Shown here: piece after piece, positions 55,233 to 59,531 of the stretch
Numbering within the stretch: position 1 is the stretch's first letter
Layout of the letters: every line of letters begins with the position of its first letter
From: Mycobacterium sp. BK086
GTDB lineage: Bacteria; Actinomycetota; Actinomycetes; Mycobacteriales; Mycobacteriaceae
Direction of reading: 5' to 3'
Length of the DNA: 64,000 bases
NCBI GenBank assembly: GCA_004362315.1
Contig: SNWL01000009.1
Coordinates: forward strand, 310,001 to 374,000
Made by a program: the position numbers and the translations under genes
The notes under the pieces: model-generated
Seen by the model: the letters and a program-made list of their open reading frames with translations, nothing else
What the model was told of the DNA's origin: nothing
Databases searched by the model: none

Positions 55233-55579
55233 TGACGCGAGCAATCGCCGTGCGGGTGGCCTGCGTGCTGTGCGCGGTCGCCGCGGTCCTGCTGGCCCTC
55301 ATCGGGTGGAACGACCTGTACTTCACCGGGTTCCCGGATTCGCATCTGACCGACTACGACAAAGCGGCCGAGCTGCCCAAGCGGGTGCTGATGCGGACGG
55401 ACTGGGGTTTCGCTTTGCTGTTCCTGTTCCTCGCGGTCTGGCCGCTCAAGCTCCGGACTCGCGGAATCGGGCTGGCAGTTGCGACGATCGCACTCGTCAT
55501 CGTCACGATCGTCCAGTGGGTCGGCATCCCTTGGTATTTCATCACCCACCTCGGTCTGGACAACGGAATCGGCGGCTAG
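55232..55579 (+). CDS. Small multi-span membrane protein
   Basis: A 115-residue protein with about three hydrophobic helices: AVRVACVLCAVAAVLLALIG, WGFALLFLFLAVWPLKL and LAVATIALVIVTIVQWVG. Between the first two lies an external acidic loop (FTGFPDSHLTDYDKAAELPK). No known family is recognised. The ATG at 55232 shares a base with the TGA of the hydrolase-like gene; a GTG three bases upstream is an alternative. The overlap suggests the two membrane proteins are made together and may interact. Confidence 0.65.
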   Translation: MTRAIAVRVACVLCAVAAVLLALIGWNDLYFTGFPDSHLTDYDKAAELPKRVLMRTDWGFALLFLFLAVWPLKLRTRGIGLAVATIALVIVTIVQWVGIPWYFITHLGLDNGIGG

Positions 55580-55689
55580 GTCCGCTATGTGACGTAGATC
55601 ACTTTATGGCTGTGAACCGTTCGGGGTGGGTTCGTCGTGAACCCAGGGAAGTCCGCCAACGTAGGCGGCTCCCACGAAAGGGGCGGGCG

Positions 55690-57000
55690 ATGAAGCTTGC
55701 CACGACGAAGGTCATCACCGTGACGGCGATGAATGTACTCGCCACGGCAGCAATGCATTTCCCGAGCGACCCGCCGTCGGCAGCTCCACCTGTGCAAGTC
55801 CGGCCGTACGCCCTGATCGGGTTACCCGACCACGCCGTCCCGCCGGTTGCACCGACCAGGCTCATCGCCGCCGAGATCGAAATGCCCACCGCCATTGCGG
55901 TGTTGGCGCCCGAGGTCGTCATACCTCACAGCAGCGTGATGCCGTTGCGGCCGGCGGGTACGCCCCGGATCATCAGCTCCGTATCGTTTCTGTCGCCGAC
56001 CGTGCATCGCTCGATCGCGGCGTCGACGTCCCGTCATCGACAGGCCGCCGCAGTGCCGGCACTGCCGACCCCGGATGCGGTCGCAGACCAGATTCGCGCG
56101 GCCGTCGCCGTCTACATCAGCAATGGCACCGCGGCACATCCCGACGCAGGTCTGTTGATCGGCAACGGATTCGACGGCGCGCCCGGCCAGGACGGTGGCC
56201 GCGGCGGCATGCTCTTCGGCAACGGTGGTCGGGGTGGTGACGGGGTGTTGAACATCAACGGCGGCTCGGCCGGCGATGGTGGTGACGCCGGACTGATCGG
56301 TAACGGTGGTGCCGGCGGCCGGGGCGGCGACCTGATCGCCACGACAAACGTCGCCGCATTCGGACGTCAAGGCGGCGATGGCGGCCGTGGCGGCCTACTG
56401 ATCGGCAATGGTGGCAAGGGCGGTACCGGCGGCACCGGCCAAAACCTCGACACCGGCGGCGCCGTCGGTGGCATCGGCGGACAGGGCGGTAAGGCCGGAG
56501 TGTTCGGCCGCGGCGGCGACGGTGGTCAGGGCGGAACCGCGAACGCCGGCACCGGAACCGCCCGGGCAGGCGCCGGCGGTGACGGCGGCCAGGGCGGACT
56601 CGTAGGCAATGGCGGCGCCGGTGGCACCGGCGGAGGCGGGTCGAGTAAGGGCAACGCCTTCGGCGGTGACGGTGGCAAGGGCGGTGAAGGTGGGCGAGTC
56701 GTCGGCACCGGCGGTAAGGGCGGCACCGGAGGGGCGGCCGGCAGCAACGTCGTGACCAGCACTGCCACCGGAGGCAAGGGTGGCAACGGCGGGAACAGTC
56801 ATGGGATCTTGCGGCCGGGCGGCGCGGCCGGCAACGGCGGCAATGCCCAGTCCCAACCGGGCACCGGTATCGGCGGCGACGGCGGCAATGGCGGCCGCGG
56901 CGGGCCTGGTGGAAATCCGGGGATGGGCGGTATCGGCGGCGTCGGCGTCGGCAGCACGCCGGGCAGCCATAACGGCAAGGCCGGCAGCGGGGCTGTCTAA
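55690..57000 (+). CDS. Secreted PGRS-domain protein without a PE domain
   Basis: A 436-residue exported Gly-rich protein. The N-terminus MKLATTKVITVTAMNVLATA AMHF looks like a signal or anchor. Residues about 30-140 are Pro/Ala-rich. From about residue 150 the sequence enters with LLIGNGFDGAPGQDGGRGG, the same style as the GRPLIGNGANGAPG entry of PE_PGRS proteins, followed by about 280 residues of GGxGG and GNGG repeats (GLIGNGGAGGRGGD, GVFGRGGDGGQGG). There is no PE domain. Residues such as VADQIRAAVAVYISNGTAA form the connecting helix. A GAAAGGGG ribosome site precedes ATG 55690. The gap of about 110 bp upstream holds no other gene. Confidence 0.82.
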   Translation: MKLATTKVITVTAMNVLATAAMHFPSDPPSAAPPVQVRPYALIGLPDHAVPPVAPTRLIAAEIEMPTAIAVLAPEVVIPHSSVMPLRPAGTPRIISSVSFLSPTVHRSIAASTSRHRQAAAVPALPTPDAVADQIRAAVAVYISNGTAAHPDAGLLIGNGFDGAPGQDGGRGGMLFGNGGRGGDGVLNINGGSAGDGGDAGLIGNGGAGGRGGDLIATTNVAAFGRQGGDGGRGGLLIGNGGKGGTGGTGQNLDTGGAVGGIGGQGGKAGVFGRGGDGGQGGTANAGTGTARAGAGGDGGQGGLVGNGGAGGTGGGGSSKGNAFGGDGGKGGEGGRVVGTGGKGGTGGAAGSNVVTSTATGGKGGNGGNSHGILRPGGAAGNGGNAQSQPGTGIGGDGGNGGRGGPGGNPGMGGIGGVGVGSTPGSHNGKAGSGAV

Positions 57001-57607: not shown

Positions 57608-59254
57608 CTAGATGTCGCCGCGGGAGAAATCGGCCAGCACTGTCGGCACCGCCGAGTCGAACCCGGTGATGTCGAGCTGCCTCGGATCGGCCGGATCGGC
57701 GATCGAGTTGAGGCTGGCGGTCATTGCGACGACCACCAGTCGCGCGTCGATACCCATCCGCTGGCGGTACTGCTCGAGTGCCTGATGCGGGTGGATGTCG
57801 CCGTACCACGTCTCGTTGTCGGTGTAGATCTGGAACGTGTCGACCTTGATCCGGTGCTTGTGTGCCCAGACCATCGGCAGCGCGCAATCCGTGGCTCCGA
57901 ACGCGAGCCTGGACATGTACTTGCACACGTCGTCGAGGCGACGACGCGCGCTGATGTCCAGACCCCGGATCGCGGTGTTCGGGTAGCCGCCGGTGCCGGC
58001 GGTGAACCCGACGATCCGGCACCTCGGCTCGGTGGCCGCGGTGACCAGAGCGAGTGCAGCCGAGGCCTCCCGGCAGGTCACCGGCAGACCCGACACTCGA
58101 GAACCCATCGAACCCGAGACGTCCAGCGCCAGCAGCGTGCGCTTGTTCGCCGGACGCACCGCACCGTATGCCGCGTAGAACGCAGCGTCCAGCGCATCGG
58201 CGATCCGCGGGACCGGGGTCCAGCGGCCGCCCTCACCCCACCCGGAAGCGTAAGTACGCTGTGCCACAAGCACATTGACCGGGTGCACGCGGGCGCGTGC
58301 CAGCCGATCGGCGTCGGCCAGCTGGGCGGCCACCGTCTCACCGACCTCGCCGTCGAGCAGGCCGAGGCGGGTCAGACGCGGAAGCTGGCGCATCAGCGCC
58401 GTCTGCGGCAAGCCGCGGACGATCAGCGCCTCCCACACCGCCGGCTCGGCCAGCGCTGCGTCGGGCAGCATCTCCCAGGACATACCGTGCCCACGGTCGA
58501 CGATCTCGACCCACCGCGCCGCCGTCGAGGCCGCCTTGGCGTCCTCGAAGTCGGCGATGATCGCGATCTCGTCGGGCACGACGTCGCACGCGGTCACCTG
58601 AGCGGACGTGCCGTGCACGACCGTGTCGCCAAGGCCCCTGCCCACCGCCCAGTTCAGGGCGATACGACGAGCCGGGTCGACGACCCCGCCCGGGCTGGCC
58701 AGCCGCAGCACATCGCGGTGGCGCCAGCCCTCGCGCTGCCGGTACTTGACCAGCTGGTAGGCCAGCCGGTCGACCGGCTGCTCGGTGTACCACCGGCCCA
58801 CGGCCCGACGCAGCGTGCGACCCCACCCACGGAACTGCTCGACGTAAGTAACGAACAGGAACAGGTGGGTGCCGGTGCGCGCGACGCGCGGCAGTGCCGC
58901 CAGCGCCGCGCGACGACCGTCGACACTGTCGACCGATGCCGCGATCGCCAGGGCGAACAGGGCCGGGTTCGGCTTGGGAGCCCGGCCCGCCTCGGAGATC
59001 TCGACGATCAGGTTCACCAGTCGCACAGGGTCATTGGCGGCAACCCGCAGTACCACGTCGGCGTTGTCGCGCGTCAGCTCGCGGGCGGAGACGTAGAACG
59101 TCCCGCCGTCGGTGCCCAGCGTCAGGAAGCGGCGCACCCGCGCCCAGTCATCGACCGAAAAGGTGTAGCCGCCAGCGGCATTGAGCACTTGTTCCGGCTT
59201 CGCGGCATGACGCTGCGGTGTCCGTCGCAGGCCGATCGTCTTGAGAATGTCCAT
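57608..59254 (-). CDS. rsr: Ro60/Rsr-type TROVE domain RNA-binding protein
   Basis: A 548-residue Ro autoantigen orthologue. The N-terminal two-thirds is the HEAT-like TROVE ring (YTFSVDDWARVRRFLTLGTD GGTFYVSARELT then VRLVNLIVEISEAG). Residues about 365-545 form a von Willebrand A domain with the MIDAS motif DVSGSMGSR near residue 375. Ro rings bind Y RNA on the outside and pass misfolded RNA through the centre. In bacteria Ro and a Y RNA tether the exonuclease PNPase and act in RNA turnover under stress (known from Deinococcus and Salmonella). Two Y-RNA-like genes lie directly upstream on the same strand, and AAAGGAG precedes ATG 59254. Confidence 0.92.
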   Translation of the reverse strand: MDILKTIGLRRTPQRHAAKPEQVLNAAGGYTFSVDDWARVRRFLTLGTDGGTFYVSARELTRDNADVVLRVAANDPVRLVNLIVEISEAGRAPKPNPALFALAIAASVDSVDGRRAALAALPRVARTGTHLFLFVTYVEQFRGWGRTLRRAVGRWYTEQPVDRLAYQLVKYRQREGWRHRDVLRLASPGGVVDPARRIALNWAVGRGLGDTVVHGTSAQVTACDVVPDEIAIIADFEDAKAASTAARWVEIVDRGHGMSWEMLPDAALAEPAVWEALIVRGLPQTALMRQLPRLTRLGLLDGEVGETVAAQLADADRLARARVHPVNVLVAQRTYASGWGEGGRWTPVPRIADALDAAFYAAYGAVRPANKRTLLALDVSGSMGSRVSGLPVTCREASAALALVTAATEPRCRIVGFTAGTGGYPNTAIRGLDISARRRLDDVCKYMSRLAFGATDCALPMVWAHKHRIKVDTFQIYTDNETWYGDIHPHQALEQYRQRMGIDARLVVVAMTASLNSIADPADPRQLDITGFDSAVPTVLADFSRGDI

Positions 59255-59293: not shown

Positions 59294-59375
59294 GCTGCGA
59301 GCGTGGGTGTGAACCGACCGGAGTATGGATTCGAACCATAGGAGCCAGGTAACCGACCGACGTCCGGCTCGCAGC
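59294..59375 (-). ncRNA. Short Y-RNA-like noncoding RNA (T-arm only)
   Basis: An RNA of about 82 nt on the minus strand. Its ends pair perfectly over 9 bp (plus-strand 59294-59302 with 59367-59375). Just inside the 5' end it carries the motif read on plus as 59348-59370, shared with the longer upstream RNA at 21 of 23 positions and expected to be the Ro-binding stem. The distal part has one tRNA T-arm-like hairpin: five-bp stem TATGG/CCATA closing the loop TTCGAAT. No D-arm is seen. It ends about 40 bp before the rsr start codon. Confidence 0.7.
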
Positions 59376-59395: not shown

Positions 59396-59531
59396 GATGT
59401 GAGCGTCTAGTGCCGACCGGCGTTAGCGCTCTGCCAAACTGAGCTACTGTCCCGCCGAAGCGAGACAGACGGGATTCGAACCCGCGACCTAACCATTCAA
59501 AGTGGTAACCGATCAACGTCCGGCTCACATC
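59396..59531 (-). ncRNA. yrlA: YrlA-like Y RNA with a circularly permuted tRNA module
   Basis: An RNA of about 136 nt on the minus strand. The ends pair over nine bases (plus 59396-59404 with 59523-59531), forming the Ro-binding end with the 23-nt motif at plus 59504-59526. Inside, read 5' to 3', it has an anticodon-arm-like hairpin (ACCA CTTTGAA TGGT, plus 59492-59506) and a T-arm (GCGGG TTCGAAT CCCGT, plus 59469-59485). Then comes an acceptor stem CTGTCTCGC/GCGGGACAG closed by a TTCG tetraloop (59447-59468), and a D-arm (59428-59444). The 3' half of the tRNA thus precedes the 5' half. Bacterial Y RNAs next to Ro genes are known tRNA mimics. Confidence 0.82.

What the first reader, a model, noticed from the sequence alone, without database searches (positions are those of the whole stretch)
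59396..59531. Y RNA that is a circularly permuted tRNA with a UUCG-capped acceptor stem
On the minus strand, directly upstream of a Ro60/TROVE gene, a 136-nt RNA can be folded by eye. The 9-nt ends are perfectly complementary. Inside them a T-arm (loop TTCGAAT) is followed by a 9-bp acceptor stem closed by a TTCG tetraloop and then by a D-arm. The 3' half of the tRNA thus comes before the 5' half. If the halves are rejoined, a CTAAC/GTTAG stem and an anticodon-like loop CTTTGAA (TTG, Gln-like) complete a cloverleaf. Bacterial Y RNAs (YrlA) are known to mimic tRNA and to sit beside Ro genes. The permuted order with a tetraloop-sealed acceptor end, and the near-complete anticodon arm, are what deserve attention: the RNA could be seen by tRNA-modifying enzymes or RNase P but never aminoacylated.
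Basis: partly seen in the sequence, partly recalled or inferred. Interest (0 to 1): 0.82.

Follow-up and report, generated by a model that had tools for sequence, protein, structure and literature searches.

The report
Y RNA: complete, circularly permuted tRNA mimic
Beside the Ro60 gene of a mycobacterium lies a small RNA with all four arms of a transfer RNA in rearranged order, anticodon loop included; relatives in phages and other bacteria share the design with differing anticodons, which suggests a tRNA look-alike that may act as bait for tRNA-handling enzymes.

Summary
Window 59396-59531 (-) encodes a YrlA-type Y RNA upstream of an intact Ro60 gene. That YrlA is a circularly permuted tRNA mimic is already published. 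What looks new is the anticodon arm. In many relatives the 5' half carries a 7-nt loop (mostly U33, R37, A38, variable triplet) on three stem pairs, while tRNA positions 27-28 come from the 3' half, after the D arm, and pair with 42-43, with compensatory changes. The permutation point then lies inside the anticodon stem (28/29), where the Ro60-type stem is inserted. Of 137 dereplicated permuted RNAs, 68 show all five pairs; another class has the break in the anticodon loop. The window copy is a deviant member: 27-28:42-43 do not pair, but a 4-bp local anticodon hairpin and the loop remain. 190 of 196 matching phage records hold most of the cluster C relative; the 60 rows listed annotate hypothetical proteins or nothing there. 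Function is inferred: a Ro60-tethered tRNA mimic, perhaps a decoy for anticodon-loop enzymes. The three primary papers on Y RNA mimicry were not held, so novelty is provisional.

The parts
59396..59531 (-). YrlA-type Y RNA (136 nt), a circularly permuted tRNA on a paired stem
59523..59531 (-). 5' arm of the 9-bp terminal stem (GATGTGAGC), partner 59396-59404
   Evidence: pair probability 0.88-1.0
59396..59404 (-). 3' arm of the terminal stem (GCTCACATC)
59509..59517 (-). 5' arm of the inner 9-pair stem, partner 59412-59420
   Evidence: pair probability 0.88-0.89
59412..59420 (-). 3' arm of the inner stem
59492..59506 (-). local anticodon hairpin ACCA-CTTTGAA-TGGT (loop 59496-59502: U33, anticodon UUG, A37, A38)
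   Evidence: pair probability 0.35-0.42
59486..59490 (-). variable loop AGGTC (tRNA 44-48)
59469..59485 (-). T arm (tRNA 49-65)
59447..59468 (-). acceptor stem in permuted order (66-72, then 1-7), extended by 2 bp and sealed by UUCG (59456-59459)
59428..59444 (-). D arm (tRNA 10-25), preceded by U8-A9 at 59445-59446
59425..59427 (-). tRNA positions 26-28 (G-CT); in many relatives 27-28 pair with 42-43, here 42-43 are TT and do not pair
59294..59375 (-). second Y-like RNA (82 nt): 9-bp ends GCTGCGAGC/GCTCGCAGC, inner stem with several G-U pairs, T arm only
   Evidence: read from the sequence, not folded; relatives with T arm plus hairpin
57608..59254 (-). Ro60/Rsr gene (TROVE + vWA)

Best explanation
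It is a YrlA-type Y RNA whose tRNA-like domain has all four arms of a class I tRNA in circularly permuted order: anticodon arm, variable loop, T arm, acceptor stem (sealed by a loop), D arm. In the relatives that define the class, the new ends lie inside the anticodon stem, between tRNA positions 28 and 29, and the stem expected to bind Ro60 is inserted there. Shown here by comparison: the arms, the split anticodon stem, the tRNA-like rules of the anticodon loop, and linkage to Ro60 genes. Inferred: Ro60 holds the RNA by its stem; the RNA presents a full tRNA surface, anticodon loop included, but as a sealed molecule cannot be charged or used in translation; it therefore engages tRNA-handling enzymes (modification enzymes, PNPase as in the known Ro RNP, possibly anticodon-loop nucleases) as a tether or decoy. 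In phages this could blunt tRNA-targeting defence or tune Ro60.
For: Register chosen by the local hairpin only: 54 of 65 Ro-linked RNAs (66 of 80 of all) also pair 27-28 with 42-43, against means of 27.7 (max 36) and 32.5 (max 43) in 2000 swaps of the 3' halves. Local 3-bp hairpin with 7-nt loop plus U33, R37, A38: 53 of 108 Ro-linked RNAs, shuffled mean 0.55, max 3. Five split pairs: 68 of 137, swapped mean 26.5, max 38 of 500; 49 with a variable loop of 5 and 19 with 4, against 0-5 at the eleven other spacings tried. On 44 chosen RNAs, 95.2% of cells pair, 17 of 21 pairs change on both sides, the split pairs hold in 95.5% of cells with 25 both-side changes, 0 of 500 shuffles reach it, slid structures give 33-45%. 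Rejoined in tRNA order, 68 of 68 are tRNAs for ARAGORN with the predicted anticodon, 6 of 68 are called in native order (the 68 had been chosen for their stem, so this is a consistency check). A34 is 4 of 61 and G37 follows G36 in 14 of 15 cases. A Ro60-like frame lies in the fetched stretch of 85 of 120 viral loci. The decoy idea has been raised in print for Salmonella YrlA (passage of PMC7790460).
Against: The window copy has only 3 of 5 split pairs and its local hairpin has pair probability of only about 0.4. 32 of 108 Ro-linked RNAs fit neither stem model perfectly and 20 fit only the one with the break in the anticodon loop. The loops also differ from real tRNAs of the same loci: A32 20% against 1%, A38 95% against 70%, and G36 is followed by A37 in 3 of 17 Y RNAs but in 57 of 110 tRNAs. 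Salmonella YrlA was not cut by the SOS-induced anticodon nuclease (PMC7790460). No expression, binding or modification data were available.
Confidence: 0.6

Rival explanations
1. Ordinary YrlA tether: the tRNA-like domain only positions PNPase or gates Ro60, and the anticodon arm is a structural support for the L shape with no function of its own.
For: Published role of Rsr and Y RNA with PNPase (passages of PMC8394870 and PMC7790460); a class of 20 of 52 Ro-linked RNAs without the split stem forms the anticodon stem between the halves with the loop open (swapped mean 1.2, max 7).
Against: The loop rules (U33, R37, A38, G36 with G37) and the variable triplet are more than a support seems to need.
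Confidence: 0.33
2. The anticodon arm is a relic: permuted RNAs arise repeatedly from neighbouring tRNA genes in phage arrays (3' part of one, 5' part of the next), so they inherit anticodon loops and the encoded CCA.
For: N-CCA stands right after position 72 in 18 of 94 acceptor caps of 5 nt or more, shuffled mean 2.0, max 7; loop composition partly like real tRNAs; some phage members lie in tRNA arrays.
Against: Compensatory changes between distant halves point to continuing selection; 14 of 61 anticodons are of Ser or Leu type (my tally, code recalled) although the variable loops are short, so these are not copies of that isotype; 10 of the 18 N-CCA caps are in the unclassified group, which may hold tandem tRNAs.
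Confidence: 0.2
3. A permuted tRNA gene: the RNA is opened at the acceptor end (RNase P, 3' processing) and becomes a chargeable two-piece tRNA held together by the Ro60 stem.
For: N-CCA in a minority of caps; RtcB RNA ligase is encoded elsewhere in this genome, which is weak support.
Against: The window copy is sealed by UUCG without CCA; 76 of 94 longer caps lack N-CCA; some anticodons do not fit the variable loop of their isotype.
Confidence: 0.06
4. The window copy is a degraded Y RNA without function.
For: Unpaired 27-28:42-43 and a second RNA reduced against relatives.
Against: Ro60 frame intact; terminal, T, acceptor and D stems all formed; z -2.95.
Confidence: 0.1

Closest known systems
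YrlA Y RNA (Rfam RF02553; Salmonella YrlA, PDB 6CU1)
   Same: Beside Ro60; pairing ends; permuted T arm, acceptor hairpin, D arm; superposes on tRNA with a circular permutation, covering 0.91 of the tRNA (passages of PMC11472068 and PMC13355120)
   Different: A closed 7-nt anticodon loop and, in relatives, a split anticodon stem; 36.4 bits against a gathering score of 69; none of 16 related loci tested reaches that score. The coverage of 0.91 suggests that the Salmonella RNA also fills part of the anticodon stem; I could not see how.
Canonical class I tRNA (RF00005)
   Same: Arm lengths, variable loop AGGUC, U8-A9, T loop, D arm, U33, R37
   Different: Circularly permuted; no free acceptor end in the window copy; stem inserted in the anticodon stem
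Permuted tRNA genes of algae (recalled, not tested)
   Same: 3' part precedes 5' part; some relatives keep CCA between them
   Different: No sign that the window RNA is processed to a tRNA; its ends pair into a Y RNA stem
Phage tRNAs that escape anticodon nucleases (PMC10264068, passages)
   Same: Same mycobacteriophage cluster C; anticodon loops in conflict with host nucleases
   Different: Those are real tRNAs; the terms Y RNA, Ro60 and decoy have 0 occurrences in the paper's main text

Membership tests
YrlA-type bacterial Y RNA (as published) | Encoded beside a Ro60 orthologue | tested here: met
   Ro60 57608-59254
YrlA-type bacterial Y RNA (as published) | 5' and 3' ends pair in a long stem | tested here: met
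   9 bp plus 9 pairs, probabilities 0.88-1.0; over 107 Ro-linked RNAs own outer arms pair at -32.5 against -22.4 kcal/mol swapped; 61 of 107 lie more than 1 sd below the swapped mean
YrlA-type bacterial Y RNA (as published) | tRNA-like T, acceptor and D arms in permuted order | tested here: met
YrlA-type bacterial Y RNA (as published) | Bound by Ro60; modified by DusA and TruB | not testable with these tools
   needs RNA-protein work
Rfam family RF02553 | Score at or above the gathering score of 69 bits | tested here: not met
   36.4 bits
tRNA (RF00005) | Score at or above the gathering score of 29 bits in native order | tested here: not met
   27.0 bits over 59461-59526; ARAGORN no call
tRNA (RF00005) | Free acceptor end with CCA | tested here: not met
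   acceptor sealed by UUCG, no CCA
Split anticodon-stem class described here | All five split pairs with a 7-nt loop | tested here: not met
   window copy 3 of 5; it keeps the loop and 4 local pairs; mycobacterial relatives L002, L003, L004, L006 have 5 of 5

The most novel reading that the evidence does not exclude
Phage and bacterial Ro60 modules carry a class of complete permuted tRNAs whose anticodon triplet is free to diversify while the loop architecture is held: a Ro60-held set of tRNA decoys aimed at anticodon-loop nucleases, some of which (those with CCA in the acceptor cap) might even be opened into chargeable two-piece tRNAs. In nine cluster C phage copies, eight of them nearly identical, the third anticodon position has three states.
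Probability: 0.2. Interest if true: 0.9.

Novelty: new variant of a known kind. Interest (0 to 1): 0.62.

Why it matters
If right, many Y RNAs mimic a whole tRNA, anticodon included, and the exact place where the Ro60 module enters the tRNA fold is known. It makes the decoy idea for Y RNAs testable with laboratory phages, explains some odd tRNA calls in phage genomes (15 ARAGORN calls in the fetched loci overlap such RNAs), and gives a descriptor for members that Rfam's YrlA model misses at its curated score (0 of 16 loci tested).

Tried and rejected
CTAAC/GTTAG as anticodon stem: rejected (pair probability 0.08-0.09; 1 of 137 with five pairs in that register, swapped mean 0.9). Cis-only anticodon stem of 5 pairs: 0 of 137 at a variable loop of 5 and 7 of 137 at 4. 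Trans-only stem (break in the loop): real, but a separate class. The Ro60 protein scan of viral contigs confirmed no relative, probably because the peptide patterns were too close to the query; the pattern scan then reached viral loci with Ro60. Model R1 matches all 397 genomes sampled; I take the many low scores to be neighbouring tRNA genes and did not use it to count prevalence. In the own genome the window copy scores 79.1 bits and the other 11 matches at most 38.5; these were not inspected. Cluster C phages gave no hit at first for L030 and L032 (part of that output was cut) because their acceptor cap is 16 nt; R1 and a wider cap found them.

Rows dropped: extractor score under 13; of 159 rows one with short flanks dropped, 137 left after 85% dereplication; 29 of 137 are not Ro-linked and are left out of Ro-linked counts. 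Ro-linked means that the locus came from a Ro60 search or holds a tblastn match; for L017 to L023 the Ro60 match is weak (E 4.5e-6 to 6e-12; L022 was left out). The 44 sequences were chosen by me (34 window-like, the window among them, and 10 of the trans class), so its percentages lean towards the model. One search uses another set, also of 137 by coincidence, with a wider cap, a GGTT-like motif required and tRNA-like 5' parts removed; 13 of its rows come from later loci. One search crashed before printing its last rows; the rows had been saved and were used.

Full report
Observation. The fold is better than chance (z -2.95, 1 of 200 shuffles). Rfam's YrlA model matches the T-acceptor-D core at 36.4 bits, E 1.6e-6 for the 401 bases searched, well under its gathering score of 69. 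The tRNA model matches 59461-59526 at 27.0 bits (gathering 29), placing CTTTGAA in its anticodon loop.

Surroundings. Downstream on the same strand come a second Y-like RNA (59294-59375; 9-bp ends, inner stem, T arm only; read) and the Ro60 gene, start placed at 59254 (TROVE and Ro60 vWA domains; solved relatives by sequence are the Rsr protein 2nvo and Ro60 entries such as 1yvp). The two named genome relatives found are Mycolicibacterium wolinskyi (80% in the best segment) and a Mycobacterium sp. (78%). Ro60 is rare in the genus: 5 of 198 genomes at E <= 0.001, the own one included, 4 over the family's cut-off; 17 of 397 genomes of the order match the protein, about half weakly. 340 of 50,697 phage records match, 197 of them named Mycobacterium phages. 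In a quick tree of 89 Ro60 proteins the five mycobacterial chromosomal rows form one group (support 100); its sister group (joint support 91) is one prophage record and four viral contigs, and other mycobacteriophages branch next. The module probably moved between phages and chromosomes; the tree is quick and midpoint-rooted.

The anticodon arm. An extractor with no condition on the anticodon (T arm, paired acceptor halves, D arm) gave 159 distinct RNAs in 160 loci and 137 after dereplication. In 68 of 137 the five pairs of an anticodon stem form if positions 27-28 are taken from the 3' half, just after the D arm, and 29-31 from the 5' half, with a 7-nt loop and a variable loop of 5 (49) or 4 (19); the eleven other spacings tried give 0-5. 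Swapping 3' halves among RNAs gives 26.5 on average, at most 38 in 500. With the register fixed by the local hairpin alone, 54 of 65 Ro-linked RNAs pair 27-28 with 42-43 against 27.7 (max 36) for swaps; the dinucleotides change together (CT/AG 27, CC/GG 15, CG/CG 5, GC/GC 2). On 44 chosen RNAs all five helices covary and the split pairs hold in 95.5% of cells, the local three pairs in 78.0%, ten trans-class RNAs included. Of the 20 dereplicated RNAs found through Ro60 searches without the pattern, 9 have the split stem (2 of them also a full trans stem), 6 only the trans stem and 5 neither (tally).

Loop rules. Among the 68: U33 61, R37 67, A38 65. The 61 loops with U33 hold 30 different anticodons; G37 follows G36 in 14 of its 15 cases; A34 is 4 of 61; there is no stop anticodon. 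In 452 distinct ordinary tRNAs of the same loci A34 is 5%, stop anticodons 5, and G37 follows G36 in 53 of 74 cases. The two sets also differ: A32 20% in the Y RNAs against 1%, A38 95% against 70%, and G36-A37 3 of 17 against 57 of 110. So the Y loops keep the architecture of an anticodon loop but obey a stricter 36-37 rule. Related sequences are not independent, so the Fisher value is only indicative. Put back in tRNA order, 68 of 68 are called tRNA with the expected anticodon; as they were chosen for their stems, this is a consistency check.

The window copy. Mycobacterial relatives L002, L003, L004 and L006 have 5 of 5 split pairs; the window has TT at 42-43 and so only 3 of 5, though the local hairpin gains a pair with T42. 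Its loop CUUUGAA keeps U33, A37 and A38, anticodon UUG. CTAAC/GTTAG is not supported. The window therefore holds a deviant member of the class.

A second class. Of 52 Ro-linked RNAs without the split stem, 20 form all five pairs 27-31 with 39-43 between the two halves, against 1.2 (max 7) for swaps; there the break lies in the anticodon loop. 32 of 108 fit neither model perfectly, the window among them.

Spread and annotation. 196 phage records match the I3 copy, 190 over at least 80% of the query; in the 60 rows listed only hypothetical proteins or nothing is annotated there. The copies of I3, Rabinovish and Tonenili have 5 of 5 split pairs. In nine such phages the third anticodon position is C (6), A (2) or T (1); eight copies are nearly identical otherwise, Tonenili's differs more. 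Of the seven records that I fetched for this, three were picked for lower identity, and one (Phabba) is another phage, with a similar RNA inside a tRNA array. 15 ARAGORN tRNA calls overlap permuted RNAs, one of them annotated as tRNA-Thr(tgt) in prophage prophiGD43A-5. At its gathering score RF02553 finds none of the 16 loci tested.

Origin. Right after position 72, 18 of 94 caps of 5 nt or more read N-CCA, against 2.0 (max 7) in shuffled caps: 6 in the split class, 2 in the trans class and 10 in the unclassified group; one further split RNA has the 4-nt cap ACCA. This hints at an origin from two neighbouring tRNA genes, the cap being the encoded CCA plus spacer. Some unclassified RNAs may be real tandem tRNAs.

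What is known. YrlA's tRNA mimicry, circular permutation and structure are in print (passages of PMC11472068, PMC8394870, PMC7790460); the superposition covers 0.91 of a tRNA (passage of PMC13355120), so part of the anticodon stem may be filled in Salmonella YrlA too. A review names Yrl RNAs in M. smegmatis (passage of PMC4726728); YrlA was predicted in some mycobacteria (passage of PMC9569102) and Y RNAs in mycobacteriophages (passage of PMC12282133). Searches for YrlA with anticodon found three held papers; the passages I read of them describe no anticodon arm in YrlA. The three key papers are not held, so I cannot say that the anticodon arm is unpublished.

Function. Best reading: Ro60 holds the stem while the tRNA-like domain presents a complete tRNA surface. 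Variation of 34-36 with 33, 37 and 38 held fits a partner that reads loop shape and position 37, such as modification enzymes or anticodon nucleases, better than decoding. A competitive-inhibitor role has been proposed for Salmonella YrlA, which was itself not cut by the SOS-induced nuclease (PMC7790460). All of this step is inference. Confidence was lowered slightly at checking, since the loop likeness to real tRNAs is less close than first written.

Noticed in passing
window 59294-59375: A second, 82-nt Y-like RNA with T arm only lies between the YrlA and the Ro60 start; in L002, L003, L004 and L006 the corresponding RNA has T arm plus a hairpin but no D arm, like a tRNA minihelix.
   Followed up: partly
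L027 1247-1325: In Mycobacterium prophage prophiGD43A-5 a permuted Y RNA is annotated as tRNA-Thr(tgt); 15 ARAGORN tRNA calls in the fetched loci overlap permuted RNAs.
   Followed up: partly
L172 1480-1660 (phage I3): The Y RNA of cluster C mycobacteriophages lies just upstream of Ro60; in the 60 rows listed it is covered by hypothetical-protein annotations or left unannotated.
   Followed up: partly
acceptor caps of permuted RNAs: N-CCA stands right after tRNA position 72 in 18 of 94 longer caps, a hint that these RNAs arose from neighbouring tRNA genes.
   Followed up: partly
Ro60 proteins: Mycobacterial chromosomal Ro60 groups with Ro60 of a prophage and of viral contigs, suggesting exchange between phages and chromosomes.
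   Followed up: partly
L034 4485-4541: Gordonia phage GMA2 carries a Pistol ribozyme (56.8 bits) in its tRNA array, near a tmRNA.
   Followed up: no
L013 1262-1367: A Y-like RNA of a bacterial genome matches the nematode small-RNA family RF01656 just over its gathering score (38.9 against 38), perhaps a chance likeness of Y RNA stems.
   Followed up: no
window 55270-57000: Glycine-rich repeat frame resembling mycobacterial PE_PGRS proteins (recalled likeness, no family search made).
   Followed up: no
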